Shown: piece after piece, positions 8,812-58,309 of the stretch
Position numbering within the stretch: the stretch's first letter is position 1
Layout of the letters: each line of letters begins with the position of its first letter
DNA from: a virus
Virus record (IMG/VR): IMGVR_UViG_3300036985_004568
Coordinates: 1 to 64,000 of that record
Strand: one strand, 5' to 3'
Length of the DNA: 64,000 nt
The notes under the pieces: generated by a model
Told to the model about the DNA's origin: nothing
What the model saw: the letters and a program-made list of their open reading frames with translations, nothing else
The model's database searches: none
Translations under genes and position numbers: made by a program

Positions 8812-9762
8812 ATGGTAAGACGTAAAGCAAAAAAGAGAATGGGTATACACAAGTTTATAGAAGCCAACTGGTCATTATTTATGGTAGGACTTATTGGGCT
8901 AATATTTCTTATCTTATTTGTTACCAAGGCTTTTGCAGGAGTAGAAACGGTTAAGGATAATAATGATGGAAATTTAGGGGATATTTTAGTAAATACGGGA
9001 ACAAAAAATGGACAAAGTGATGTAGGCACTTGGACAAATCCAACTTGTATACCCTCTTTAAAAGGAGATAAAGGAGACAAGGGAGATAAAGGAGCTACTG
9101 GTGCAACTGGATTACAGGGTATCCAGGGAAATCAAGGTTTTGTAGGAAATAATGGAACTAATGGTTTAAATGGTAAAGATGGTAAAGATGGAATTAATGG
9201 TAAAGATGGTAAAGATGGAATTAATGGTAAAGATGGTAAAGATGGAATTAATGGTAAAGATGGTAAAGATGGAATTAATGGTAAAGATGGTAACGATGGA
9301 GAAGTTGGACCAAAGGGTGACCAGGGAGATGTGGGATTGCCAGGAGTTCCTGGGGAAGAAGGCGCAAAGGGAGACATTGGAGACAAAGGGGAGCACGGGA
9401 TACAGGGAATGAAGGGCCTTGACTTTGATCCCGCAACTCTTAATGAACAGAATAGTAAACTTGATAATATGAACTCTCGTATTAACAAATTAGAAAGAAC
9501 GCAGTATGTATTTCAGGGGGAAGTAAGATTATTTGATACTCGCAAATGGACAGGAAAACCTTTTGTGCGATACAATATTCAAAGGCACAAGGTGGATACC
9601 GTTGGCTTTATACTCACCTACAAAATGGGTAAGAGTTATGAAGAACGCCAAATGGAGTTATTAAATACTCGTCTTGATCGAATGGAAAAAAACCAACCCG
9701 CAGTAATTGAAAGACATTATAATGCGGACGGAACAGTAAAGGAAATTAGTATCCACGATTAG
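8812..9762 (+). CDS. Secreted collagen-like protein
   Basis: 316 residues, ATG behind AAGGAGG. Basic N-terminus and a hydrophobic helix near residues 20-40 ending T-K-A-F-A-G, a plausible signal peptidase site. Residues about 84-200 are 39 uninterrupted G-x-y triplets, including tandem G-K-D-G-K-D-G-I-N. A coiled coil (LDNMNSRINKLERT) and a globular end follow. Collagen-like triplets form triple helices in phage fibres and bacterial surface proteins; a signal peptide is unusual for a virion fibre, which is normally assembled in the cytoplasm. It could therefore decorate the infected cell surface, or the hydrophobic helix could anchor it. It has its own strong promoter. Confidence 0.82.
   Translation: MVRRKAKKRMGIHKFIEANWSLFMVGLIGLIFLILFVTKAFAGVETVKDNNDGNLGDILVNTGTKNGQSDVGTWTNPTCIPSLKGDKGDKGDKGATGATGLQGIQGNQGFVGNNGTNGLNGKDGKDGINGKDGKDGINGKDGKDGINGKDGKDGINGKDGNDGEVGPKGDQGDVGLPGVPGEEGAKGDIGDKGEHGIQGMKGLDFDPATLNEQNSKLDNMNSRINKLERTQYVFQGEVRLFDTRKWTGKPFVRYNIQRHKVDTVGFILTYKMGKSYEERQMELLNTRLDRMEKNQPAVIERHYNADGTVKEISIHD
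9172..9300 (+). repeat. 27-bp in-frame tandem repeat
   Basis: Four identical copies of a 27-base unit (two GGTAAAGAT plus GGAATTAAT) followed by a partial fifth with one changed base, encoding G-K-D-G-K-D-G-I-N. Identity at synonymous positions points to recent expansion. The copy number is likely to vary between relatives. Confidence 0.9.
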
Positions 9763-27208: not shown

Positions 27209-27576
27209 TGCGCCTACTCATATGTGGAGACCGTAACTGGAAAAATAAGGAATTAATCTTAAATGTTATTAGGGCTATAAGACCTAAGCCTAAAGTTGTA
27301 ATATGTGGTGGTGCCAGTGGCGCTGACACTCTTGCAAAAGAAGTGGCTCTAGAGTTGGGGATTCCAGTTAAAGAATTTATGGCAAATTGGGCACAGTTTG
27401 GTAAGGCAGCTGGCCCAATGCGAAATAAACAAATGTTGCAAGAAGGCAAGCCCACGTATGTTATTGCCTTTCATGATGATATAAAGAACTCTAAAGGTAC
27501 GGCTCATATGCTTTACATTTCTAAGTATTATAAAATACGTACAACTTTATATACTACGAGAGGAATTGAAAAATGA
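27208..27576 (+). CDS. SLOG-domain protein, YspA/DUF2493-like
   Basis: 122 residues. L-L-I-C-G-D-R-N-W opening, I-C-G-G-A-S-G-A-D near residue 33 (nucleotide-binding loop), F-M-A-N-W-A-Q-F-G-K-A-A-G-P-M-R-N near 60-76 and V-I-A-F-H-D near 86. Matches the cpYpsA-related SLOG family, Rossmann-like proteins thought to bind nucleotides or NAD-derived ligands and often tied to phage-host conflict. Exact ligand unknown. Coupled to the primase-helicase by a four-base overlap. Confidence 0.82.
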   Translation: MRLLICGDRNWKNKELILNVIRAIRPKPKVVICGGASGADTLAKEVALELGIPVKEFMANWAQFGKAAGPMRNKQMLQEGKPTYVIAFHDDIKNSKGTAHMLYISKYYKIRTTLYTTRGIEK

Positions 27577-30500
27577 TTAAGAACCTCGGATCCACTTTAG
27601 AGACTTTAAAACCTTTTCTTAGGAAGTACCTACTGGTTAAAGGCACACAGTTTAAGGGTAGGTTGTTCTCCTGTCCTAATAAACAGGCTCATAAAAACCT
27701 GGATATTAAACCAGGTTGTAATTTTCTGGATAAAGAGGAAACTAAATTTTATTGCTATGTTTGCCTCCCCGGGCATGAAGAAGTAAGGACCTCATTAGGG
27801 CTTAAACCTATTAAAGATCTACTTATAGGGGAAAAGGTATATACAAGACTGGGACAAGAGACAACCCTTATTAATAAAGTAAAACATGATCCCCAGTATG
27901 CTATCATAAATTTGCAAACCGGCCTTACTCCTATTGGCCATAGTATGACCCAAAATCATGCGATTCCCATAATTAAACAAGAGCAAGTATATACAATGCC
28001 CTATATTGAATTAATTCCAAATAGGTATAAATTTTCTAGTAGGGCCTTTTATAGAAACCATATTTCTAAATATACTGATGTTTTAAATATCTTTAAAGTG
28101 CCCGCTAAAGATATTAGAGTTGGGGATTATTTATTATATCCAGAAACTAGACATATTACCGATTACTCTAAAATCTATACAGATAGAATAATTAAAAAAT
28201 ATACAAAAGGCCCCATGAATAAACGTATTACAAAAATTCCACTAGAGGACGACATTTTATGGATGTTTGGTCTCTATATTGCAGAGGGTAATACATATAG
28301 AGGAGGGGTAAGGTTTACTTTACATAAAAATGAAACTGCCTATCAAATAAAATTAAAGCAAATTTTTAAAACATATTTTGCTAAAGACTTAGTTGAGCGC
28401 GTTCATAATAATTCTTGGACTGCTACTTGTTCATCTACAGACCTAGAGCTTATTTTTAGAGAATTATTTAATGATTTAGCAGAAAATAAAATATATCCAT
28501 ATTTCTTTAATTATCTCCCTATTGATAAGCGGCATGCCTTATTTTCTGGAATAATGGCTGGGGATGGATCTAAAACAAGAGAATTTATTAAAATAACTAG
28601 TTCTGCCCTGATTGCACAATTATTTGATTTAGGTATATCCTTACATAAAATCCCTAGTTATCAAGAATACCCAGAATATACGGATAACATGGGAATTAGG
28701 CATTTAAAAACTTATAGTCTTTCTTTTATAAGACCCTCACTCAGGGGATTTTTTGAGACTATTGAAGGTGTTACTTATTTATTACAACAAGTAACTAAAA
28801 TTTCCTTATGTGGACAGGAGCCGGTATATGATATAACCGTAAAAGATCAAGATCATTCCTTTGTTGGAAAATTCTTTACTTTTTATAATTGTGGCGCATC
28901 TGGTGATATCGTAGATGCAGTACATCTTTTAGAGGCTAGACCTATAACTGGTTCAGGTTTTCATGATACAATAGAATACTTATGTAAGTTAGTTAAGGTA
29001 CCATTTGAATTGGCTGAAGAGACCCCAGAGTCTAAATTTATGCAAGAGGTAGAGGCCTTCTTGGGTGCTTTAGTGTCCAAAGCCCATACTAATCTTAAAA
29101 ATTTAGTAGTTACTCAGCCCGAACATCCGGCGGTTAAACTATTACAGACTAAGGGATGGTTAAATAGTGTAGACACCTATAAACTTGGATTGATCCAAGC
29201 GGTTAAGGAGAATAAGTCCCAGAAATTGATGGATGTTTGTAACTTTTTAAATTTAGACCTTAATCACTTAGTTAATGGTATTATTATTCCAATTGAGTTT
29301 AAGCATAAGTTAATAGGATTTCAGATCAGAGCCACTGATTTAAATACATTAGGGGGCATGAAGTATAAGACTTATTTATCTACTAGTAAAGGATTGTTTA
29401 ACCTAGATAATATTGATGCCTCCCAACCAGTCTATATAGTAGAAGGGGCCTCATCTGTTATAGTTATGCATAACTTTGGAATAGACAATGTTGTTTCTAC
29501 CTTAGGTAACGGATTAAATGAATCCCACTATGAGGCATTAATTTCTAAGGATGTTAAAGATGTATGTGTATTATATGACAATGATGAAGGTGGAGAGTTA
29601 GGTAGAAAACGGGGTTGTGAGACATTTGTAGGTAAGGGCGAGATCAAACTAAACTTCAAACTATTGTCTAAGGAGAATGACCCGGCCGATTATGTGTTGG
29701 CAGGTAATAAATTAGAAACTTTACCAACATTAACTTTATGGGATTACCTTTTACACAAAGGATATAAAGAGTTGATGTTAAAGTATGTAGCAGCACAGCA
29801 GGATTTAATTGATAAAGAGAAGTTGGTTAATATACTAGCTAAAGAACTAGATGTTCCTAAGAGCATACTCTTGGAAGAAATCCATAAGTATGAAAGCACA
29901 ATAAGTGAAGTTCCCACCATCATGTCTTTAAAAGAGAAGGAAAGTATTATTGAGACTATTAATACTTTCGAAAAATGGGCATGGAGTCGTGGGGAATTAC
30001 TGGGAATAAAATCATTTGATTGCTTTGATAAATGCTTTGATGGATTACAGGAAGGATTGATTTTGGTAGGTGGTGCGCCTAACGTAGGAAAATGCTTAAG
30101 TGGGGAGACTCTTATCCAAACTACTTTAGGGTTAGTTCCGATACAGAACCTATTTAAAGAAAAAAATAAAGTAATAGGTACATTTACTAATCCTACAGAT
30201 AAATTCTCAGTTCCCGGCCCACTTAGTTTAGAGCCAGTAACCAAACTTTATTATACAAAAAGTAAATGTTATAAGGTAATTTTAAATAATGGCCGAGAAA
30301 TTATAGGAACGCCAGAACATCCCCTCTTAACTAATATTGGGGTATTTAAACAGCTTAAAGAACTCACTTTAAAGGACCAACTAATAACTAGTAATGGGGC
30401 AAATATTTGGGGGACTAAAGTTACTTTAAATAAATTTGTGCCTTCCCAACAATTATTGGCTACTGCAACCATAATTCCTAAAATGTATCCAATAGAATTA

Positions 30501-32129
30501 ACCAAAGATTTAGCCTTTTTACTCGGATTATATATAGGAGATGGCGCATGTTTTGCTCCAGATTTTTCTATTACCCAAAAAACACCGTATAATACAACTA
30601 TAAATAAACTGATTAAAAAACTCTTTGGTATTAGGCCCCACACATATAAATTGGAATTGTCGGCAGGTAGGTTAATTCGAACCTATTTTGAGGAAATATT
30701 AGGAGTGCCCTATGTTACAGGTGGGTATAAAGAAGTCCCTTCTTGTATATGGACTGCCCCCAAAGAGGTTGTAGCTGCATTTATAAGTGGTTATTTTGCT
30801 GCCGATGGATATATAAATAAAACTAGAGTCGAGATTAGTTTAACTACAAAATCTTATAAAATGTCCCAACAATTGGCTACACTATTAGATAATTTTGGTG
30901 TAAGAAATTATATTAGGGTAGTAAATAGATGTGCATCTAATACTAAATTAAAAATTAAACGAAACTATTATACAGTTACAGTACGTGGAACCTATGAAGA
31001 TGCTGTACGTTTTAGAAGTGAAGTTTGTAGTAATCGTACGGGAAGATCCGGAAAATTCCATGCTCTAGAAAAATTAACTGGACAGTTTAATAGAAGTTAT
31101 CAGCCACTTAGGACGAATACAGGTATACGGTTTGAGCCTATGGGAATAAAAGAAATAATTTATTTAACAAAAGAACAAGAAGTATATGATATTAGTGTAC
31201 CAACAACGCACCAGTTTATTGCTAATGGCATTGTAAGTCATAATAGCGCGCTTACAACGTCAATAGCCTGTAGAATTATGGAGACCACTCCAAATCCCTA
31301 TATTATCTATTTGAGTATAGACGATTCTGCTATTATAACTACGGCTAGATTTTTAGCTAACTTATCTGGTATTCCTATTAATATTGTTTCAAATCCTAAA
31401 CATCGTATTGTTGAAAATAAGTATTATACGGATGCCGAAAGAAAAGATTTGATGGTGCGTAGAGAAAAGGCCCTAGAGTATATGCGTAAACATGTGACTG
31501 TCTTTAATTTGAAGGATGCGTCTAGTGGATATACTATTGAATATTTAAATACACTCTTTAAATCCCTAGAACCTATTATTAAAGATAAGAAGGTTGTCTT
31601 AATAGTGGATAATCTGCATAAATTACGAAGTCTTAGGGATTTTAAGAGTGATAAGTCTTTGGTGGACTCTGTATGTAGTAATTTAAAGATTCTTTCAGGT
31701 GTGTACAAGTGCCCAGTAATAGCCACTGTTGAACATACAAAGGCATCTATACAATTAGGTGAAGTTGGAGGTTCGGCGATAAAAGAGTCCTCTTCGTTGC
31801 ATTATGATGCTAATTTAATTCTGACTGTTGTGCTAAAGCAGGTGGTTGGTACCTTTAAATTGGTTGATGTAATAGTTAGTAAAAATAAAATGAGTACTTT
31901 TATTGGAGCCCTACCCTTTAGACTATATCCTGATCAAAGTAGAATGGAAGCCTGTGATGGAAATGCCTCTAACTTTGGATTACCCCAGGATGGACCTGTA
32001 TCCCAAGAAGTTAAAACTGAACCTATTACTCAAGGAGAACCTGATGGAAAAATTTCAAGTAATGGAGAAGGAAATCCTATTAATAAAGAACAAGGAACTC
32101 CAGGAGTGGGTACGGAAGAGCCTAAATAA
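27573..32129 (+). CDS. Bifunctional primase-helicase with two inteins
   Basis: 1518 residues, of which 758 remain after excision of inteins at residues 64-439 and 841-1224. The N-terminal zinc domain has C34, H40, C61 and the Cys just after intein 1; a Toprim domain follows (I-V-E-G-A-S-S near residue 623, L-Y-D-N-D-E-G-G near 668) and a DnaB/RecA-type helicase whose Walker A G-G-A-P-N-V-G-K/S is split by intein 2. Walker B is V-V-L-I-V-D-N near 1345. The plan is that of T7 gp4-type primase-helicases: RNA primer synthesis plus hexameric unwinding at the fork. Both insertions hit essential sites, so the product is inactive until spliced. The end overlaps the HD gene by 86 bases. Confidence 0.88.
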   Translation: MIKNLGSTLETLKPFLRKYLLVKGTQFKGRLFSCPNKQAHKNLDIKPGCNFLDKEETKFYCYVCLPGHEEVRTSLGLKPIKDLLIGEKVYTRLGQETTLINKVKHDPQYAIINLQTGLTPIGHSMTQNHAIPIIKQEQVYTMPYIELIPNRYKFSSRAFYRNHISKYTDVLNIFKVPAKDIRVGDYLLYPETRHITDYSKIYTDRIIKKYTKGPMNKRITKIPLEDDILWMFGLYIAEGNTYRGGVRFTLHKNETAYQIKLKQIFKTYFAKDLVERVHNNSWTATCSSTDLELIFRELFNDLAENKIYPYFFNYLPIDKRHALFSGIMAGDGSKTREFIKITSSALIAQLFDLGISLHKIPSYQEYPEYTDNMGIRHLKTYSLSFIRPSLRGFFETIEGVTYLLQQVTKISLCGQEPVYDITVKDQDHSFVGKFFTFYNCGASGDIVDAVHLLEARPITGSGFHDTIEYLCKLVKVPFELAEETPESKFMQEVEAFLGALVSKAHTNLKNLVVTQPEHPAVKLLQTKGWLNSVDTYKLGLIQAVKENKSQKLMDVCNFLNLDLNHLVNGIIIPIEFKHKLIGFQIRATDLNTLGGMKYKTYLSTSKGLFNLDNIDASQPVYIVEGASSVIVMHNFGIDNVVSTLGNGLNESHYEALISKDVKDVCVLYDNDEGGELGRKRGCETFVGKGEIKLNFKLLSKENDPADYVLAGNKLETLPTLTLWDYLLHKGYKELMLKYVAAQQDLIDKEKLVNILAKELDVPKSILLEEIHKYESTISEVPTIMSLKEKESIIETINTFEKWAWSRGELLGIKSFDCFDKCFDGLQEGLILVGGAPNVGKCLSGETLIQTTLGLVPIQNLFKEKNKVIGTFTNPTDKFSVPGPLSLEPVTKLYYTKSKCYKVILNNGREIIGTPEHPLLTNIGVFKQLKELTLKDQLITSNGANIWGTKVTLNKFVPSQQLLATATIIPKMYPIELTKDLAFLLGLYIGDGACFAPDFSITQKTPYNTTINKLIKKLFGIRPHTYKLELSAGRLIRTYFEEILGVPYVTGGYKEVPSCIWTAPKEVVAAFISGYFAADGYINKTRVEISLTTKSYKMSQQLATLLDNFGVRNYIRVVNRCASNTKLKIKRNYYTVTVRGTYEDAVRFRSEVCSNRTGRSGKFHALEKLTGQFNRSYQPLRTNTGIRFEPMGIKEIIYLTKEQEVYDISVPTTHQFIANGIVSHNSALTTSIACRIMETTPNPYIIYLSIDDSAIITTARFLANLSGIPINIVSNPKHRIVENKYYTDAERKDLMVRREKALEYMRKHVTVFNLKDASSGYTIEYLNTLFKSLEPIIKDKKVVLIVDNLHKLRSLRDFKSDKSLVDSVCSNLKILSGVYKCPVIATVEHTKASIQLGEVGGSAIKESSSLHYDANLILTVVLKQVVGTFKLVDVIVSKNKMSTFIGALPFRLYPDQSRMEACDGNASNFGLPQDGPVSQEVKTEPITQGEPDGKISSNGEGNPINKEQGTPGVGTEEPK
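27762..28889 (+). other. Intein 1 of the primase-helicase, with LAGLIDADG endonuclease
   Basis: 376 residues from Cys64 to Asn439. It begins C-L-P-G-H-E-E-V and ends K-F-F-T-F-Y-N before a +1 Cys. Two LAGLIDADG-like motifs, F-G-L-Y-I-A-E-G-N and F-S-G-I-M-A-G-D-G-S, mark a homing endonuclease. Block B is M-T-Q-N-H-A-I-P. The residue before the final Asn is Tyr, where His is usual, so splicing may be slow or use another helper residue. It splits the zinc-binding domain just before its last Cys ligand. Confidence 0.85.
30093..31244 (+). other. Intein 2 of the primase-helicase, with LAGLIDADG endonuclease
   Basis: 384 residues from Cys841 to Asn1224, ending I-V-S-H-N before a +1 Ser. Block B is G-T-P-E-H-P-L-L-T; endonuclease motifs L-G-L-Y-I-G-D-G-A and S-G-Y-F-A-A-D-G-Y are present. 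Inserted exactly between Lys and Ser of the helicase Walker A loop, a favoured site for inteins in P-loop ATPases. Confidence 0.9.
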
Positions 32130-46848: not shown

Positions 46849-48438
46849 ATGGCTGATAATAGAGTAGAAAATACCCCTCCCAGTATAGCACCAAAATTAG
46901 AAGCATTAGACTCCCAATTTAAGTTTGTTACTTATTTAATTGGAGCTATGCAGATCACTGCTGAAAAAGATGGTGGTGGGGAAAAGCGAGAAAATCTTGA
47001 TAAAGAACTTCGTTTAAGAAATGTATTTCCAATTAATCCCGTTAAACTAGAGGAATCCAAAACTGGTATGTCCTCAGAAGAGATTACTATTAAGATGAAG
47101 GGCTGGATAGCATCTGGATGTTGGGATAAATTTGGAGAACAAGCCATTAATATTTGGAAGGGACGTGATTATGTTGAAGCCAACGGAAGTCTCAAGCATG
47201 TACCCGGGGACATTGCTTACTGTACAATGTCTAGCTGGATTACTTTTAGGCTTTCTTCTGGCGACCAGCCTTGTATTGCTAACAATACTCCTATTACAAT
47301 GGCTGACTTTTCTACCAAAATGATTCAAGATATTGTTCCTGGAGATAAGATATTAGGATTTGTTAAAAGAAATAGGAAAACCTATTTAACTGAATCTACT
47401 GTTTTTGAGACGTTAGATAGGGGGATAAAAAGTACAGTGCAGTGTTTAGGGCCAAATTCATCCGTATTTGCTACTCCAGATCATCCATTTTTAACACCCA
47501 ATACACGATCTGGTTCAATTTATGCTCCAGTCAAAGATATTGGGACCTGTTTTGCCACAGATTGCAGTCCATTAACTCTAGAATTTATAAAAGGTTGGTT
47601 TTTAGGTTATACACAACATGATGGAAGTATGATAAATACAAAACATGGGGCGGCTTTAACTTTTTTGTCTAATAAGCAAGAAGAGATAAACAAGGTATAT
47701 GAAGTAATGCAGAAATTAGGACTAACACCTACTCCAGTTAAACGAGGTGGATTAAATTACAAATATTGGGTAGTTGGTACGTATAAAAGGTCCGACATTC
47801 TACTTGTACAAAAATGGCAGAATGAACTAACTGGAAAAGTGCAATTAAAAGGTTGGTTAAGTGGGAGTATTGATGCTGATGGTTATTATGAACTTGAGTC
47901 AATAAGGTACACCCAAGCAGAAGTACATAATAGGAATATAGAACAATTTAAAAAAGCACTTGAGTCTATTGGGATCAAGTATTCCCTACAAGTACGCAAT
48001 CGTAAAGGTCTATTTGGATTACGTAGTATTAATGCAACTCCGGAATACACGATTTGTATGCCGAAAAGTGTTGCTTTTACATGTCCCTCCCTATTAGCAT
48101 ATAAACGTTTAAATTTTAAGTATACTATTGATAAGTTACAGGTACCCATAACCACAATACCTGCTGGCAAGTTGCGAGTTTTTGATCTTGCTACCTCAAC
48201 AGGAAATTTTATGGCTAATGGTTTTATCGTACATAATTGTGGTTCTTACATGGAGTGTGGGATCGCTATGGAACACGGTATACCAATCTATCTTATAACG
48301 GATATACCTAAAAAAGAATTAAAGCAAAGTTTACTACAGGCAATATTAGTGACCCAAGGAGAAGTATTCAGGACTGAGAATGAATATTTACTCTTCATAG
48401 ATAAGAAGTATGATTTAAAGAGGAAAAATGCGGATTAG
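46849..48438 (+). CDS. Nucleoside 2-deoxyribosyltransferase-like protein with an intein
   Basis: 529 residues, 207 after removal of an intein at residues 142-463. Extein: Y-L-I-G-A-M-Q near residue 30, D-G-G-G-E-K-R, F-P-I-N-P-V near 60, a S-S-G-D-Q-P/C-G-S-Y-M-E-C-G-I-A motif across the splice site and I-P-I-Y-L-I-T. This is the Rossmann-like plan of deoxyribosyltransferase and related nucleotide hydrolase families, where the S-S-G-x-x-x-E motif holds the catalytic Glu. Probably cleaves or transfers a nucleoside glycosidic bond. Actual activity is unknown. Confidence 0.7.
   Translation: MADNRVENTPPSIAPKLEALDSQFKFVTYLIGAMQITAEKDGGGEKRENLDKELRLRNVFPINPVKLEESKTGMSSEEITIKMKGWIASGCWDKFGEQAINIWKGRDYVEANGSLKHVPGDIAYCTMSSWITFRLSSGDQPCIANNTPITMADFSTKMIQDIVPGDKILGFVKRNRKTYLTESTVFETLDRGIKSTVQCLGPNSSVFATPDHPFLTPNTRSGSIYAPVKDIGTCFATDCSPLTLEFIKGWFLGYTQHDGSMINTKHGAALTFLSNKQEEINKVYEVMQKLGLTPTPVKRGGLNYKYWVVGTYKRSDILLVQKWQNELTGKVQLKGWLSGSIDADGYYELESIRYTQAEVHNRNIEQFKKALESIGIKYSLQVRNRKGLFGLRSINATPEYTICMPKSVAFTCPSLLAYKRLNFKYTIDKLQVPITTIPAGKLRVFDLATSTGNFMANGFIVHNCGSYMECGIAMEHGIPIYLITDIPKKELKQSLLQAILVTQGEVFRTENEYLLFIDKKYDLKRKNAD
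47272..48237 (+). other. Intein in the deoxyribosyltransferase-like protein
   Basis: 322 residues from Cys142 to Asn463, ending F-I-V-H-N before a +1 Cys. Block B is T-P-D-H-P-F-L-T; LAGLIDADG motifs appear as G-W-F-L-G-Y-T-Q-H-D-G-S and S-G-S-I-D-A-D-G-Y, the first weakened. Inserted in the active-site S-S-G-x-x-x-E loop. Confidence 0.88.
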
Positions 48439-51296: not shown

Positions 51297-53513
51297 ATGG
51301 GTATAGGTAGCTCTTGGGAAAATTTCTTCGATAAACAGGCAAAGAACACAGCTGCTACAGCTAAGTTCATTGAAAAGCCCACTTCTCCTGAAGTATTCTT
51401 CAGGGACTGGATGGGACAACCCCTATTTCCTGAGCAGTTAAATCCTATTAATGCCATGTTTACTCCAGATCTTGAGAACCTCAATCCTGATATTAATGAG
51501 ATTCTATTAATGTTTGGAGAAGGCGCTGGAAAAGACTTTCTATGTGAGCGCATGTTAATATATGTAGCTTATTGGTTACTGTGCCATAAGAGCCCACAAA
51601 AGTACTTAGGTAGGGCTGAAGGTACGCCTATCGACTTAGTAAATACTTCCGTAAATGAAGAACATGCATCCAATGTATTCTTTGAGCAGTTCTGTGAGGC
51701 CGTAAAATTAGTTATTAATCCCATAACTGGAAAGAATTGGTTTGAAGAACAAGGTATGGATATCCGTTCTGGTAGGGATATACTCACAACTAAAGTAAGG
51801 TTTCCAAAAAATATCACCGCCTATAGTTGTAACAGTGTTAAATACACCGCTGAAGGAAAGAACGTATTAATTGGAATCCTCGACGAGATCGCAGAATTCA
51901 AGTATGATAGGGCTAAATCATTATACACCAACCTTAAAGCTACCGCTACTTCCCGCTTCCCAAACTACCATAAGATAATTTTAATATCTTATTTAAGAGA
52001 CCAGTATGATTTTATGAACAGTCACTGGAACGAGATGGAGGCTTTACCAGAATCTTTGCGTAGGAAGGTATATATGTCAAAAAAGGCTACTTGGGAAGTG
52101 AACCTAATGGTCTCTAAGGCAGATTATGCAGATGCATACGCACAGGATCCAGAAGACTCGGCAAGAAGATATGAAAATATTATGCCTAGTAAAACTGGCC
52201 AGAAGTTTATAAAGAACGGAATTAAGATTACTAATGCTGTATATGACTTTGATGGTTCTCCCATTATATCGGAAACTCCCCATGTTAGTACTAATATAAA
52301 TGAGGAGACCCTGCAGGTTTGGTTTAAGGCGTTTTATATTAAAGAAATTTATAGATTGGAGCAGGAATTAGCCCTAAGTCCCAACAGTGCAGAATTAAGG
52401 GCTAAAATTGATGCATTAAAAGATAACCATAGTGGTGCTAATTATTATATTCATATTGACTTGGCAAAAGGTGCAGTTGACTATGCTGGGTTTTGTATGT
52501 TGCATACTTATCAGAAGACTGAGTCCCAGATTGGATATTACACCGATCTAATCGTACAGTTACAGCCGGATGGCAATGAGATAAATTTTGAGCAGATAAG
52601 GGAATTTATTTTTAAATTACAAAGTATGGGATTTCCAATCGCTAAGGTCTCACTAGATGGGTGGTCCTGTCAATTAGGTACAAATAAAATAAAATTACTT
52701 AATGGCACCACTAAAAGAGTTGACGAAGTAACTCAAAAAGAATGGATTTATGCTTTTGATTCCTCCACTAATAGGATTGTCCCTGCTGAATGTAATCCTG
52801 CACGGAAAACTGGGGAAAATATAGGTTGTTATGGGTTACTTTTAGATAATGGAGAACAGGCTTCGTTTACCGCAGAACATAAAATTTTAATGTTAAATGG
52901 GACTTATAAAAGAGTAATAGATTTAATCCCAGGAGACCAAATAAGGCCTTTAGAATTTAGGGAAAAGAATATTTGGGGTGGGGGAAGTACTTATTTACAA
53001 GTCCACCAACCCTCAAATAAAACTAAAAAATGGCAATTTGTCCATAAAATTGTATCAATTACTTATATTGGTAAAAAGGATGTATATGATTTAGAAGTAC
53101 CTAATTATCATAATGTTGGCCTAGAGTGTGGAATATTTGCACATAATTCAACAGATTTTATGCAATTATTGGATAAAAGGGGAATTCCATGTGAACTAGT
53201 GTCTCTAGATCGCACTATGCAGCCTTATAATACTTTAAAGGATTTATTATACCAGGAGATACTTGAATATTATTATAACCCTATACTACTTAGGGAGTTA
53301 AATGAACTACAGATTATAAATAACAAGGTAGATCATCCTAAAGAAAGTACAGAAAGGTTAAAGGAAGAGGGTAAAAGACTGGGTTCCAAAGACCTTGCTG
53401 ACTCCTTGGCCGGTGCTGTATTTACTGCATCTTCTGCGGGTGGTTCCGGTTCAGGTTGTGTGGTAGAATTAGTGCCGGAAGAGGCCGAAGATAAGTTGGA
53501 TAAACTCTTTTAG
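51297..53513 (+). CDS. terL: Terminase large subunit with a mini-intein
   Basis: 738 residues, 578 after loss of an intein at residues 458-617. ATPase domain: Walker A-like M-F-G-E-G-A-G-K-D near residue 72 and Walker B V-L-I-G-I-L-D-E-I near 190. RNase H-like nuclease: Y-I-H-I-D-L-A-K-G near 385, V-S-L-D-G-W-S at the intein junction and D-L-A-D-S-L-A-G-A near 700, giving three Asp. Packages and cuts concatemeric DNA in the prohead with the small subunit. Inserting an intein in the nuclease core means splicing gates cutting. Confidence 0.87.
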   Translation: MGIGSSWENFFDKQAKNTAATAKFIEKPTSPEVFFRDWMGQPLFPEQLNPINAMFTPDLENLNPDINEILLMFGEGAGKDFLCERMLIYVAYWLLCHKSPQKYLGRAEGTPIDLVNTSVNEEHASNVFFEQFCEAVKLVINPITGKNWFEEQGMDIRSGRDILTTKVRFPKNITAYSCNSVKYTAEGKNVLIGILDEIAEFKYDRAKSLYTNLKATATSRFPNYHKIILISYLRDQYDFMNSHWNEMEALPESLRRKVYMSKKATWEVNLMVSKADYADAYAQDPEDSARRYENIMPSKTGQKFIKNGIKITNAVYDFDGSPIISETPHVSTNINEETLQVWFKAFYIKEIYRLEQELALSPNSAELRAKIDALKDNHSGANYYIHIDLAKGAVDYAGFCMLHTYQKTESQIGYYTDLIVQLQPDGNEINFEQIREFIFKLQSMGFPIAKVSLDGWSCQLGTNKIKLLNGTTKRVDEVTQKEWIYAFDSSTNRIVPAECNPARKTGENIGCYGLLLDNGEQASFTAEHKILMLNGTYKRVIDLIPGDQIRPLEFREKNIWGGGSTYLQVHQPSNKTKKWQFVHKIVSITYIGKKDVYDLEVPNYHNVGLECGIFAHNSTDFMQLLDKRGIPCELVSLDRTMQPYNTLKDLLYQEILEYYYNPILLRELNELQIINNKVDHPKESTERLKEEGKRLGSKDLADSLAGAVFTASSAGGSGSGCVVELVPEEAEDKLDKLF
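52668..53147 (+). other. Mini-intein in the terminase large subunit
   Basis: 160 residues from Cys458 to Asn617, ending I-F-A-H-N before a +1 Ser. Block B is F-T-A-E-H-K-I-L-M; V-Y-D-L-E-V-P and V-G-L-E-C-G-I-F-A-H-N are the C-terminal splicing blocks. There is no LAGLIDADG motif, so it is a splicing-only intein without endonuclease. Confidence 0.88.
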
Positions 53514-53574: not shown

Positions 53575-54864
53575 ATGTGGTATAATTTATTCGGAGTATT
53601 CCATAAAAAGACTGAGGCGCCTCTTGCAGAAGTTGAGTCCCCTGCTATTTCAGAAGGGGTTGCCTATGTTGCGCCTGAGGAGAGGTCTTTATCTGCAGAC
53701 CAACTTTCTACTTTATATCTAACCAATTCTTGGGTACGTAAGTACATAGATATTATAGTTAGCGGTTGTCTAAAGTATAAATTACAGGCAGTTCCTGCAC
53801 CTGGGGTTAATGCGGCTGTTGCTACAGCCCACATGCAAGAAGTAAACACCTTCTTATCCTATGCAAACGAGGTTGAGACATTTGGAGATGTTAGGGGTAA
53901 ATATCTTAAAGATCTTTTGTTATTTGGTAATGGTGCTTTAGAATGCCAACCAAAAACAGGTACTGCAATCAAGTTCTTATATGCGGCTCCGGGATATCTA
54001 TTAAGAGCTAAATTTGATGCTTATGGTAACCTTGCTAAGGCAGGTTGCTATGCATTTATGGATCCTAAAACAGGAGTAGAGAGTGAAACAACCTATGGCC
54101 AGGAAGACCTGGTACATTTTAAATTAGACCAATTAAGTGACCATTTCTACGGATCTTCTCCAATTGCATCCGCTTATAAGGAGTTAAATGCTGATACTAA
54201 GGCCCTTAAAGAGATGGAACGTGGAGATTTTGGTATTTCCCCCCAGGTATTAGGATTTCCTAAGCAGACAAAGACCTGGATTTCTACCGTTATGACAAGT
54301 ATCCAGTCGGTTATTACTGGTAAGGGTGGTAATAAGGTGGTGAGTGTAAATACTGACGATATTAAAAAGATTGCTTTATCTGATAAGACCTATAAGGATG
54401 AGTTTGAATTTCAGAAGTGGCTTGTACAGAGGCACAATGTCTTTGGTATCCCTCCCTTTAAGCTGGGATTTGTAGATTCTACCGGATCTATGTCTGCTAG
54501 GGAGCAGAGAGAAGAATTTCAGTCCCTTATTTGGACATTAGTGACCTATGAGTGTGAAAAGTTAACTTTAATACTATGTCGTTTACGTCTAAAGTATGAG
54601 GATGTTATTATTACATCCCCGGAACTTATTACACGGTTGGATTTTGATAAAGCCCGCGTCCTTGACCGTTTAGTAATGTCTGGTATTATCACTCCTAATG
54701 AGGCCCGAGTTAAATATCTTGGCCTTGATGCAATATTGGATAAGAACGCAGATAAACTCTATATGAAAAAGAGTTTGGATGTTGAGGTAGATCCTAAAGT
54801 TACTGAATTGGAAGATAAGAAGAGTAAACTTATAGAAAAATTACTAGAAGAACATAAGGATTAA
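53575..54864 (+). CDS. Portal protein
   Basis: 429 residues behind AGGAGG. Y-L-T-N-S-W-V-R-K-Y-I-D-I-I near residue 47, L-L-F-G-N-G-A-L-E near 118, Y-G-S-S-P-I near 202 and the clip-region G-I-P-P-F-K-L-G near 300 agree with HK97/Phage_portal-family proteins. Forms the dodecameric gate for DNA in the capsid vertex. Directly after the terminase, as is usual, but it is not followed by protease and capsid genes. Confidence 0.8.
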   Translation: MWYNLFGVFHKKTEAPLAEVESPAISEGVAYVAPEERSLSADQLSTLYLTNSWVRKYIDIIVSGCLKYKLQAVPAPGVNAAVATAHMQEVNTFLSYANEVETFGDVRGKYLKDLLLFGNGALECQPKTGTAIKFLYAAPGYLLRAKFDAYGNLAKAGCYAFMDPKTGVESETTYGQEDLVHFKLDQLSDHFYGSSPIASAYKELNADTKALKEMERGDFGISPQVLGFPKQTKTWISTVMTSIQSVITGKGGNKVVSVNTDDIKKIALSDKTYKDEFEFQKWLVQRHNVFGIPPFKLGFVDSTGSMSAREQREEFQSLIWTLVTYECEKLTLILCRLRLKYEDVIITSPELITRLDFDKARVLDRLVMSGIITPNEARVKYLGLDAILDKNADKLYMKKSLDVEVDPKVTELEDKKSKLIEKLLEEHKD

Positions 54865-54875
54865 TAGGAGGAATC

Positions 54876-55175
54876 ATGGAGTTATTTTCTAATCCAGAAT
54901 TAACAGAACAAATCACGGGACTTGAGGTTGAGTTAGGCATTGTTCCTGCTGGTGAATCTAAGACCTATACCTTTTTCCTATATAATGAACAAGATTGTCA
55001 GTTAACTAATATACAGGTTAAGGTTAGGCATCCTGAAGTCACTATTGTTAGGGCTCCCCAAACACTCGAAGCAAAGTCCTCTGGAGCTATAGAGGTGAAA
55101 TGGGAAGCTTCAGTTACAGTTAAACAGGGGCTGCATACTCCCATTGAGATATTTGCTGATGAACTCTGGAGATAA
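54876..55175 (+). CDS. Ig-like virion protein
   Basis: 99 residues, behind TAGGAGG. Strands G-I-V-P-A-G-E-S-K-T-Y-T-F, L-T-N-I-Q-V-K-V, and S-G-A-I-E-V-K-W-E-A spaced as in immunoglobulin-like or NEW3 beta sandwiches. Probably decorates the head or attaches fibres. Next to portal and collagen-like fibre genes. Confidence 0.65.
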   Translation: MELFSNPELTEQITGLEVELGIVPAGESKTYTFFLYNEQDCQLTNIQVKVRHPEVTIVRAPQTLEAKSSGAIEVKWEASVTVKQGLHTPIEIFADELWR

Positions 55176-55177
55176 AT

Positions 55178-56275
55178 ATGATATTACGTCAAACAGAATA
55201 TAATAACTGGAGAGGGGCATGGGATTCTGAAAGAGCCTATATAGTTTATGATATTATTGAATATAACGGTTCTGCCTATGTTTGTATTAAACAACATGCC
55301 GATCAAGTTCCTCCAAATTTAACTTATTGGAATTTATTAGCTGAAGGACAAATAGGTCCGCAAGGACCTCAGGGGGAAATTGGTAGTCAGGGGCCCCAAG
55401 GCTTTCAAGGCAACCAAGGACTTACTGGAGATACCGGTGACCAAGGTGGAGTTGGTGAGCAGGGCCCTATGGGACCACAAGGACACCAAGGCTTCCAAGG
55501 TTGGCAGGGCTATCAAGGAATTAAAGGGGACACTGGTGATCAAGGTGGACAGGGATTTCAAGGAGAAGAAGGAGAGATTGGTCCTCAAGGTGATGCTGGA
55601 ATACAAGGACCACAAGGCAATCAAGGGTTTCAAGGTAACCAAGGGCCACAGGGAAGTACCGGAAGTCAAGGTGCAACAGGATCCCAAGGACCACAAGGTG
55701 TGGCTGGTTCTACAGGCCCGCAAGGAACTCAAGGTGTACAAGGGGCAGTTGGTAGTCAAGGAAATCAGGGCAATCAAGGTAACCAGGGCGCACAAGGACC
55801 CAATCAGGTCTCTACGTCTACAGCAACTAATATTACCGGAATACTTAAGGGGAATGGAGCAAATGTTTTAGCTGCTACCCCGAGTACTGATTATCTGGTC
55901 CCTAATGATATTCAGAGCGCCTTTGCTGAGTCTCTTGGTGTATCCACATCTACCTCAGCAGTATATGCACAAAAATTAAGATTATCTTTTACACCTACTA
56001 CATCTGGTAATTATTTACTAATTTGGTCGTGTGAGACTGTGAACTCAAATGGCGGTGGTACTATTGTATATATTCAAGTTCAGCAGAATGATACTACTAA
56101 CTTAGCCGGAGAGTTTGTACATGAGGTATGGACTGGTAATTTATATGAAGCCCAAGCAGGTTCTGCTGTGGTGGCCTTGACTGCTGGTGTAGCTCAAACA
56201 TTTGATATGGACTGGAGACGCTCTGCAAATAATGGGCGCATTCGTGATGCTAGAATGGCAATACAAAAACTTTAA
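55178..56275 (+). CDS. Collagen-like fibre protein
   Basis: 365 residues. Residues 5-52 resemble a carbohydrate-binding fold found in fibres (W-R-G-A-W-D, Y-I-V-Y-D-I-I-E-Y-N-G-S-A-Y). Then 51 uninterrupted G-x-y triplets (about 56-208), rich in G-P-Q, G-N-Q and G-F-Q, and a beta-rich trimerising domain. No signal peptide, unlike the collagen-like protein at 8812. A structural virion fibre; Gln-rich triplets are common in phage collagens. The antisense open frame over this region is a composition artefact. Confidence 0.85.
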   Translation: MILRQTEYNNWRGAWDSERAYIVYDIIEYNGSAYVCIKQHADQVPPNLTYWNLLAEGQIGPQGPQGEIGSQGPQGFQGNQGLTGDTGDQGGVGEQGPMGPQGHQGFQGWQGYQGIKGDTGDQGGQGFQGEEGEIGPQGDAGIQGPQGNQGFQGNQGPQGSTGSQGATGSQGPQGVAGSTGPQGTQGVQGAVGSQGNQGNQGNQGAQGPNQVSTSTATNITGILKGNGANVLAATPSTDYLVPNDIQSAFAESLGVSTSTSAVYAQKLRLSFTPTTSGNYLLIWSCETVNSNGGGTIVYIQVQQNDTTNLAGEFVHEVWTGNLYEAQAGSAVVALTAGVAQTFDMDWRRSANNGRIRDARMAIQKL

Positions 56276-56284
56276 GGAGTTAAC

Positions 56285-56491
56285 ATGACTTATACTTATA
56301 CTTTAGTTTCTGAATCCCCGGATCTAGATTTTATTCACATACAAGTAGCAAGTTCTCTTATGGTTGATAAGCAAATTGATTATTGTAGGTATGATGAAGA
56401 TTTATGTCTGCTTCAGGTGATCTTTATTAATGAATTATCAGTGGAAGATAAGGCTATCCTTGATCAGATTGTAACACAACTACCTATTTAA
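56285..56491 (+). CDS. Small virion-module protein
   Basis: 68 residues behind AAGGAG. T-Y-T-Y-T-L-V-S-E-S, then I-D-Y-C-R-Y-D-E-D-L-C and S-V-E-D-K-A-I-L-D-Q-I-V. Alpha/beta with acidic character. In the fibre cluster, so probably a structural or assembly protein; not recognised. Confidence 0.62.
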   Translation: MTYTYTLVSESPDLDFIHIQVASSLMVDKQIDYCRYDEDLCLLQVIFINELSVEDKAILDQIVTQLPI

Positions 56492-56493
56492 CT

Positions 56494-57081
56494 ATGAAAA
56501 ATATTATTGTTAATACAGCTGCCATCTTTGATCTGGTTCTTCTCGGAACTGATGGTAAAAAAGTTGAAGGCCTGGATATTCTTTATGAAATCAGAAGGGC
56601 CGATGACAATTCCTTAAGTGATACCGGGATAATGGGGGAAGAATCAGGGAGATATTTTGTAACAATTAACTTATCTGTTAAAGCACAGTATGTTATGTTT
56701 TATACTACACCTGAGGGTTATGAGGACGGTATGGAGGATTTTGCGGTTATAGATGAGCAAGCCAAAGAGTCCTCTGTCCAAGCCATTTCTACAAAAATAG
56801 ACCTTTTAGCGGGAACTTTAACTTCTATAATTAATTCTTTAACTTCACACAGGGGATTAACTGAAGATCGTTTAGCTAGAATACTTGGATTAGTACAGGA
56901 AAATTTTAGAATTACTTCCCCTGTATATGATACTCTAGGAAACTTAATTAGTAGTGTTACCAAAATTTATGCATCAGCTTCTGATTGCAATGCAGATATA
57001 AATCCTATTGCTACCTATTCGGTTGCGGGTTCTTATGATTCCACTAATAAACTTCTAACTTATAAAGTAACCAAAAACTAA
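56494..57081 (+). CDS. Virion-module protein with beta-sandwich and coiled coil
   Basis: 195 residues. Residues 1-85 beta-rich (F-D-L-V-L-L-G-T-D-G-K-K-V-E-G, G-R-Y-F-V-T-I-N-L), like baseplate/upper-fibre domains with a G-x-x-V-x-G-L pattern; 90-140 helical; then N-L-I-S-S-V-T-K-I-Y beta region. Function likely structural. Start lacks a strong ribosome binding site but follows the previous stop by two bases. Confidence 0.65.
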   Translation: MKNIIVNTAAIFDLVLLGTDGKKVEGLDILYEIRRADDNSLSDTGIMGEESGRYFVTINLSVKAQYVMFYTTPEGYEDGMEDFAVIDEQAKESSVQAISTKIDLLAGTLTSIINSLTSHRGLTEDRLARILGLVQENFRITSPVYDTLGNLISSVTKIYASASDCNADINPIATYSVAGSYDSTNKLLTYKVTKN

Positions 57082-57082
57082 C

Positions 57083-57856
57083 ATGCCTGATCCTGAAGAT
57101 CCAATACCTCCTCCTGATGAAGACGATGATTTAGGTGGTCATGCTAGACATCGTACCCCACCAAATCAACCTACTGTTAAATCTGTTGTTTTAGCGGGAG
57201 TTGGCTTATTTAAAAATGTCCTTTCTGCTATTACTAGGGGATTATTGTCCCCAAAAGAACTTCCAGTTGGGGAAGAGCCAATTGGAGGGGGTGGAAAACG
57301 GAGGAAAAAGTCACAAAAGACCCCTTATTTCCCTGGAAGGATAGTTCCACAGAGTAAAAAGTATAAACTTACGGGAACTAAGAAATTTCCCTTCCATTTC
57401 AAGGCTTTTGTGCTTGGAAAACTGAAGATAAGAGTTAAAGCGAAGACTAAGGTGCGGGGAACCTTACTTGCCCCTACGAGCCTCCTAGCGCAAATAACGG
57501 GTATTAAGCTATTTAAGAAGATGCTTAGGGCGCTTATTGGTGGTACAAAATTGACAAGAACGTTGACAAGAATACGTATTTTTGGAGTTAAGTTATTTGC
57601 TTCCAAGAGGTTATGGTTTGTCAAGGGGATTAAATCCTTTACTTACCAAGTACGGCAGATCCTTAGAGGTACCAAGTCATTCTCCAACTTTAACAAGTAT
57701 ATCTTAGTAGGAATTAAAATCTTTAGTACCAAGGTAAAATTAACCCTAAAAGGAACAATATTTAAAGCAATTAAATGTTTAAAGCAATTGAGGGGTAAAA
57801 AGGATTTTAAGAAGTTTTTATTTGCTTTGGGGATATTTGAAAAGAAGAAACGCTAA
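57083..57856 (+). CDS. Very basic protein with a strict 14-residue repeat
   Basis: 257 residues. Acidic Pro/Asp-rich N-terminus (1-30) and a Gly/Lys linker, then from residue 93 about 11-12 units of 14 residues with pattern L-x-G-x-K-x-F and basic or hydrophobic residues after it. Gly occurs at 98, 112, 126, 140, 154, 168, 182, 196, 210, 224 and 238, exactly 14 apart; two earlier Gly (39, 53) have the same spacing. The DNA of the units has diverged. Such regularity suggests a solenoid or amyloid-like stack with a positive face. No family recognised. Last gene before the strand switch. Confidence 0.75.
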   Translation: MPDPEDPIPPPDEDDDLGGHARHRTPPNQPTVKSVVLAGVGLFKNVLSAITRGLLSPKELPVGEEPIGGGGKRRKKSQKTPYFPGRIVPQSKKYKLTGTKKFPFHFKAFVLGKLKIRVKAKTKVRGTLLAPTSLLAQITGIKLFKKMLRALIGGTKLTRTLTRIRIFGVKLFASKRLWFVKGIKSFTYQVRQILRGTKSFSNFNKYILVGIKIFSTKVKLTLKGTIFKAIKCLKQLRGKKDFKKFLFALGIFEKKKR

Positions 57857-58309
57857 TCCGAAGATCCAACCAATTCCCAGTTCAGTTACCCACACATTTA
57901 TTTCAAATCTCACCATAAAGTAATTTACTAAACATAATAGTAGGGTAAACATAAAATAGGTATACCAGTCTTTGGTATGATAAGCAATGGGTAAGAAAGC
58001 AATAAGCCCGTAAACTAATCCACATAGCGTACGGGCCTGCACATTTGTTAATCCTAGAACATGCTGAAAGATTGAGTTTTCCCCATATCCTAAACGTATA
58101 ATTAGTGCTGTAATAATAGATAAAATTCCAATAATCCAATTCTTAGAGTTAAAGCCAAACACAATACCACATAAAATAGGAATTATTGTATCTCTCCATC
58201 CTACCCAAGGCCACGGATTTGGATTAATTAGACCAGGGCCCCAACCCCCTAAACGCCACAGGGGGCCACATGCCAACCATAAGCATATATTAAAGACAAT
58301 TTTCCACAT
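57818..58309 (-). CDS. Multi-pass membrane protein
   Basis: 163 residues, five or six hydrophobic helices and a Trp- and Pro-rich N-terminal third (W-G-P-G-L-I-N-P-N-P-W-P-W). Its 3' end overlaps the convergent gene at 57083-57856 by 39 bases, so the two operons meet with no terminator between. Candidates are holin or envelope protein; no motif decides. Confidence 0.65.
   Translation of the reverse strand: MWKIVFNICLWLACGPLWRLGGWGPGLINPNPWPWVGWRDTIIPILCGIVFGFNSKNWIIGILSIITALIIRLGYGENSIFQHVLGLTNVQARTLCGLVYGLIAFLPIAYHTKDWYTYFMFTLLLCLVNYFMVRFEINVWVTELGIGWIFGLAFLLFKYPQSK

What the first reader, a model, noticed from the sequence alone, without database searches (positions are those of the whole stretch)
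57083..57856. Protein with eleven exact 14-residue steps and strong positive charge
Gly recurs at 98, 112, 126, 140, 154, 168, 182, 196, 210, 224 and 238, always 14 apart, usually followed by x-K-x-F/L. Two earlier Gly at 39 and 53 keep the spacing. Strict period with diverged sequence means selection for geometry, as in beta-solenoids. Lys and Arg are abundant, and the N-terminal 30 residues are acidic. I cannot match it to a known repeat family. It ends the fibre cluster.
Basis: partly seen in the sequence, partly recalled or inferred. Interest (0 to 1): 0.75.

Follow-up and report, generated by a model that had tools for sequence, protein, structure and literature searches.

The report
Cationic 14-residue-repeat phage virion protein
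A strongly basic phage protein built from about a dozen 14-residue units is the last gene of a conserved packaging, portal and fibre gene block; its strict repeat is kept in two related phages even at 24% identity, so it is probably a real but undescribed structural protein that assembles with the virus's fibres, although neither its fold nor its job could be shown.

Summary
Window 57083-57856 encodes a 257-residue protein with Gly at 98, 112... 238: eleven Gly, ten exact 14-residue steps (chance about 1e-10). Two homologues were found, both in uncultured phages: G001 (56% identical) and G004 (24%). Both keep the period, the basic charge and the gene order TerS-TerL-portal-Ig-like-fibre-small-Ig-like-this gene. 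Eight of the 35 residues invariant in all three proteins are Gly of the 14-residue steps (six in the array, plus G39 and G53). The gene is under purifying selection (dN/dS about 0.4). Within each unit the residues after the G-[T/I]-K corner alternate hydrophobic and polar/basic, which favours one amphipathic beta-strand per unit. Two AlphaFold2 runs failed (pLDDT 40 and 46), so 'beta-solenoid' is neither confirmed nor refuted. No match was found in Pfam, PHROGs, NCBIfam, the PDB, named phages or plasmids. It is the most basic of the phage's 147 ORFs, and its operon neighbours are acidic in all three phages. Best reading: a cationic beta-repeat structural protein of the fibre module. The same phages carry another 14-residue repeat in their tail-tip protein, and a shared unit is suggestive only.

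The parts
57083..57856 (+). Gene of the 14-residue-repeat protein, 257 aa, net charge +46
   Evidence: homologues in G001 and G004
57083..57130 (+). Acidic, Pro-rich N-terminal tail (residues 1-16), absent from both homologues
   Evidence: alignment A4
57197..57241 (+). N-terminal repeat unit (residues 39-53, GVGLFKNVLSAITRG) bounded by two Gly invariant in all three homologues
57284..57373 (+). Gly- and Lys/Arg-rich linker (residues 68-97); basic motif GGGGKRRKKSQKTPYFPGRIVP shared with the G001 homologue
57374..57832 (+). Main array of 14-residue units (residues 98-250): G-[TI]-K-x-F-x-phi-x-phi-[KR]-phi-x-[VIL]-[KR]
57818..57856 (.). Convergent 3' overlap between the repeat gene (+) and the 163-aa gene 57818-58309 (-); a similar overlap exists in G001
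56494..57081 (+). 195-aa neighbour (Ig/baseplate-adaptor-like by eye), acidic; homologous to the 161-aa protein at the same place in G004
   Evidence: 32% identity, E 2e-32
56285..56491 (+). 68-aa acidic small protein of the same operon
55178..56275 (+). Collagen-like fibre protein with a weak CBM5/12-like N-terminus (below Pfam's cut-off)
   Evidence: Pfam Collagen E 2.6e-23, PHROG tail fibre E 1.9e-63
54876..55175 (+). 99-aa Ig-like (by eye) acidic protein, conserved in G001 and G004
   Evidence: 36% identity, E 1e-24
53575..54864 (+). Portal protein
   Evidence: PHROG portal E 6e-17; 37% identical to G004
51297..53513 (+). Terminase large subunit interrupted by an intein

Best explanation
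The gene encodes a structural (virion) protein of the fibre module. About twelve 14-residue units, each a roughly ten-residue amphipathic beta-strand followed by a G-[T/I]-K corner, stack into a rigid elongated sheet, solenoid or shaft. The hydrophobic face is buried and rows of Lys/Arg lie outside. The strongly basic surface docks the protein on the acidic partners encoded just upstream (collagen-like or other fibre, Ig-like proteins), or on a negatively charged cell-envelope polymer, so that it acts as a cationic clamp or stalk in a fibre assembly. SHOWN: the period, its conservation, coding selection, the gene order and the charge pattern. INFERRED: beta-strand units (from alternation), virion location (from gene order). 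GUESSED: docking partner and assembly role.
For: Last gene of the block TerS-TerL-portal-Ig-like-fibre-small-Ig-like in three phages; between window and G004 the neighbours are only 32-37% identical. Period 14 kept in all three, with chance 1e-10, 7e-7 and 2e-7; invariant residues across the three include G39, G53, G98, G112, G154, G182, G196 and G238. dN/dS about 0.41, about 0.38 in the array. Hydrophobic/polar alternation at positions 4-13 in each homologue (p 0.016, 0.012, 0.024); beta propensity exceeds alpha propensity, as in the phage's tail proteins and unlike its alpha-helical proteins. Net +46/+57/+27, while every one of the four preceding operon products is acidic in all three phages (-2 to -21).
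Against: No structural model: pLDDT 40 and 46, with low-confidence helix instead of strand. The helical hydrophobic moment is about as strong as the beta one in the window protein. No virion proteomics. No homologue with a known function. Strong basicity is unusual for an exposed fibre and would also fit a DNA-binding protein. Only three homologues are known.
Confidence: 0.45

Rival explanations
1. It is a nucleic-acid-binding protein, for example an internal head protein or DNA-packaging accessory co-expressed with terminase and portal, whose Lys/Arg ladder neutralises phage DNA.
For: Most basic of 147 ORFs, +46 with the next at +26; same operon as TerS, TerL and portal; Gly/Lys/Arg-rich linker GGGGKRRKKSQK.
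Against: A strict 14-residue Gly geometry with buried-face alternation is not needed to bind DNA non-specifically; the gene directly follows fibre and Ig-like genes in all three phages; the G004 member is much less basic (+27).
Confidence: 0.2
2. It is a membrane-active cationic amphipathic protein, made for lysis, for genome entry or as an antibacterial factor.
For: Units such as GIKLFKKMLRALIG look like cationic amphipathic peptides; low-confidence AlphaFold helices; helical hydrophobic moment z about 2; the convergent neighbour on the other strand is a hydrophobic protein.
Against: In G004 the convergent neighbour is a tail protein, not a lysis gene, so a link to lysis is not conserved while the link to the fibre genes is. 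The spacing is unusually regular for a membrane-active peptide array. The G004 homologue shows hydrophobic/polar alternation of beta type.
Confidence: 0.12
3. It is a virion protein whose array uses the same 14-residue unit as the stalk repeats of the tail-tip protein in these phages (TIxSDAxIKGTxQx ... KDFxxxLxxxV), i.e. one modular beta-unit used both in a neutral tail-tip stalk and in a cationic fibre-associated protein.
For: Across the sequence examined in the two close phages (the whole of G000, part of G001) these are the only two proteins with 14-residue self-similarity. KDF-type tail units fit the array of this protein best in the one expected register (column-permutation p 0.006 window, 0.021 G001). 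SDA-type units rank that register first of 14 in all three homologues.
Against: SDA-type permutation p only 0.10-0.21; KDF units do not fit the G004 member; whole-array profile comparison finds nothing (hhalign probability 0.2%). Convergence on a 14-residue beta-unit is possible.
Confidence: 0.2
4. The ORF is spurious, or the period is a translated DNA repeat or shadow of another frame.
For: Odd composition; no clear Shine-Dalgarno sequence before the start.
Against: Conserved in three phages in the same place, dN/dS 0.41, no unusual synonymous constraint (z -1.4), unit DNA identity only 38%, no 42-bp tandem repeat, other frames contain many stops.
Confidence: 0.02

Closest known systems
YadA-like left-handed parallel beta-roll heads of trimeric autotransporters (PMC9543794)
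   Same: 14-residue layers with a Gly at one fixed position in each layer; multi-layer superperiods (triplets in BpaC; here self-similarity also at 28 and 42 residues)
   Different: No second conserved Gly in the unit, bulky F/L/I/V and Lys/Arg instead of the composition described for BpaC, not an autotransporter, no profile or PDB hit
Triple beta-spiral fibre shafts (adenovirus fibre, reovirus sigma-1; from memory)
   Same: One strand-plus-Gly-turn repeat per chain, alternating hydrophobics, virion fibre context
   Different: Canonical repeat about 15 residues with a different hydrophobic register; no detectable homology; trimerisation untested
14-residue stalk repeats of the tail-tip protein of the same phages (L011 9740-13414 and relatives L014, L016, L017)
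   Same: Period 14, superperiods 28/42, Gly-Thr after a hydrophobic-Lys pair, KxFxxx[LV] unit
   Different: Neutral to acidic, SDAxI core motif, in a large multidomain protein before a fibronectin III domain; whole-array homology not detected
Collagen-like phage fibre proteins (upstream gene 55178-56275)
   Same: Repetitive fibre-module protein of the same operon
   Different: Gly-x-y triplets; unrelated sequence and period

Membership tests
Beta-solenoid protein (general) | Regular repeat length kept by selection | tested here: met
   Period 14 in three homologues
Beta-solenoid protein (general) | Parallel beta-coils stacked along one axis | tested here: inconclusive
   AlphaFold2 pLDDT 40 and 46, no usable model
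YadA-like beta-roll head | 14-residue layers with Gly at position 8 and, in the BpaC type, a second fully conserved Gly at position 1 (criteria read in PMC9543794) | tested here: not met
   14-residue layers with only one conserved Gly per unit; no Pfam hit for this family in any member
YadA-like beta-roll head | Trimeric assembly with autotransporter anchor | tested here: not met
   Phage gene without any anchor or autotransporter domain in Pfam, NCBIfam or PHROGs; trimerisation itself not testable here
Triple beta-spiral shaft | About 15-residue repeat with Gly/Pro turn and hydrophobics on both sides of the turn | tested here: not met
   Repeat is exactly 14; no PDB sequence hit; consensus recalled from memory
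Phage structural (virion) protein of the fibre module | Conserved position in a portal/fibre operon | tested here: met
   Same gene order in three phages
Phage structural (virion) protein of the fibre module | Presence in purified virions | not testable with these tools
   Needs proteomics; host and virus uncultured
Known protein family (Pfam, PHROGs, NCBIfam, PDB) | Profile match above curated threshold or at a significant E-value | tested here: not met
Same repeat unit as tail-tip stalk | Detectable profile homology of arrays | tested here: inconclusive
   hhalign negative; unit register test positive for KDF units in two of three homologues

The most novel reading that the evidence does not exclude
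These phages use a so far undescribed 14-residue beta-repeat as a standard building element: a neutral version as a length-variable stalk in the tail tip, and a strongly cationic version in a separate protein at the end of the portal/fibre operon. The cationic version would form an electrostatic clamp or polyanion-binding ladder, with a new shaft or solenoid fold.
Probability: 0.2. Interest if true: 0.62.

Novelty: new variant of a known kind. Interest (0 to 1): 0.42.

Why it matters
It defines a small undescribed family of strictly periodic, highly basic phage proteins tied to fibre genes. A repeat kept exactly at 24% identity is a clean target for structure determination. If it is a solenoid or shaft with stacked lysine rows, it would be a new way to build or anchor a phage fibre or to hold on to charged cell-surface polymers.

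Tried and rejected
AlphaFold2 on the full protein with one homologue and on a 70-residue five-unit segment with six repeat rows: both below pLDDT 50, so no fold search was run. Viral-contig, GTDB-genome, named-phage and plasmid searches for further homologues: only G001 by sequence; G004 came through its tail-tip protein. Overlapping-gene or RNA function from synonymous constraint: not significant (z -1.4). Out-of-frame origin or DNA tandem repeat: rejected. Whole-array profile homology with the tail-tip repeats: not detected. Literature searches for a 14-residue phage repeat: no relevant paper in the held library. Promoter and terminator scans: no more than chance.

Full report
OBSERVATION. 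Translation of 57083-57856 gives 257 residues. Gly at 98 to 238 in steps of 14 is exact: eleven Gly, ten steps. The chance that 11 of 14 Gly in residues 85-257 share one phase is about 5e-12. Self-similarity by BLOSUM62 peaks only at 14, 28 and 42, six standard deviations above shuffles at 14. K at +2 occurs in 8 of 11 units and the full x-K-x-F/L in 7. Gly 39 and 53 form a separate N-terminal unit, three residues out of phase with the array. The protein carries net +46, the highest of 147 ORFs in the 95.4-kb virus record; the next is +26.

HOMOLOGUES. A first scan found one relative in uncultured phage G001 (IMGVR_UViG_3300036980_001087), 56% identical. Scans with neighbours, with the pair alignment and in GTDB genomes, named phages and plasmids found no more. 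The route through the tail-tip protein led to a 67-kb phage, G004 (IMGVR_UViG_3300005099_000100), with a 191-aa relative. Sequence support for that third member is modest (BLAST E 6e-6 against the G001 protein for a single comparison; genome HMM E 0.011). It rests also on gene order: the preceding protein is 32% identical to the window's 195-aa neighbour, and the Ig-like protein (36%) and portal (37%) are syntenic.

PERIOD IN HOMOLOGUES. In G001 10 of 21 Gly, and in G004 9 of 15, fall in one phase of 14 (p about 7e-7 and 2e-7). Of the 35 residues invariant in all three, eight are Gly of the 14-residue steps: G98, G112, G154, G182, G196 and G238 in the array, and G39 and G53.

CODING. Between window and G001 dN/dS is 0.41 overall and 0.38 in the array. 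Synonymous changes are slightly fewer than expected from other genes of the pair but not significantly so (z -1.4). Other frames carry many stops. Units share only 38% DNA identity, and no 42-bp tandem array is detected, so this is an old repeat kept by selection, not recent slippage.

UNIT ANATOMY. Pooled over three homologues the unit reads G-[TI]-K-x-F-x-phi-x-phi-[KR]-phi-x-[VIL]-[KR]. Even positions 4-12 are hydrophobic and odd positions 5-13 polar or basic in each homologue (p 0.016, 0.012, 0.024). Average beta propensity exceeds alpha propensity by +0.05 to +0.08, like the phage's tail proteins and unlike terminase small subunit, tape measure and portal. The hydrophobic moment is ambiguous, with peaks at both 110 and 170 degrees in the window protein. 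Two AlphaFold2 runs reached only pLDDT 40 and 46. Beta structure is thus favoured, not shown, and solenoid, meander and intertwined shaft cannot be told apart.

GENE CONTEXT. In all three phages the gene closes the block TerS, TerL, portal, Ig-like 96-99 aa, fibre, small protein, Ig-like 161-195 aa; 'Ig-like' and 'TerS' are readings by eye and by position, not profile hits. The fibre is collagen-like in the window and G001 and a different type in G004. The four products between portal and this gene are acidic in each phage (net -2 to -21), while this one is +27 to +57. The next gene is convergent: a hydrophobic protein in the window and G001, a tail protein in G004. The conserved link is therefore to the fibre block, not to lysis.

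RELATION TO THE TAIL-TIP REPEATS. In a scan of the whole of G000 and part of G001 for 14-residue self-similarity, only this protein and the tail-tip protein stood out. The tail-tip arrays (TIxSDAxIKGTxQx, ending in one or two KDFxxxLxxxV units before a fibronectin III domain) differ in length between relatives. KDF units fit this protein best in the expected register (p 0.006 window, 0.021 G001, not in G004); SDA units rank the same register first in all three but with p 0.10-0.21. Whole-profile comparison is negative. Common origin of the unit is possible but not demonstrated.

KNOWN FAMILIES. No Pfam, PHROG, NCBIfam or PDB match. The nearest formal analogue with 14-residue layers is the YadA-type beta-roll (PMC9543794), but its second conserved Gly and its autotransporter context are missing.

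VERDICT. The most likely role is a cationic beta-repeat structural protein of the fibre module (0.45).

Noticed in passing
window 52668-53147 (inside TerL 51297-53513): In-frame intein in the terminase large subunit (Pfam Intein_splicing E 4e-9); absent from G001, while G004 has an intein at a different TerL site.
   Followed up: partly
window 27573-32129: 1518-aa primase/DnaB-like helicase that by eye carries two inteins, at least one with a LAGLIDADG endonuclease.
   Followed up: partly
window 46849-48438: 529-aa protein interrupted by an intein with a LAGLIDADG domain.
   Followed up: partly
L011 9740-13414 (-), L006 875-4171 (-), L014 4343-7150, L016 530-4192, L017 5158-8424, L019 5986-8100: Tail-tip proteins with 14-residue TIxSDAxIKGTxQx stalk repeats of very different copy number (about 2 to more than 10) and swapped N-terminal domains (propeller-like or parallel-beta-helix-like by eye, F5/8 C by Pfam) before a fibronectin III domain.
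   Followed up: partly
L016 5732-6604 and 7374-8063; L019 345-905: ORFs that look by eye like free homing endonucleases, lying between or overlapping tail genes of relatives.
   Followed up: no
window 57818-57856: Convergent genes overlap at their 3' ends by 39 bp; G001 has a 51-bp overlap at the same place.
   Followed up: no
window 8812-9762 and L007 3597-5345: Further collagen-like proteins in the same phage; the second is the most acidic protein of the genome (net -68).
   Followed up: no
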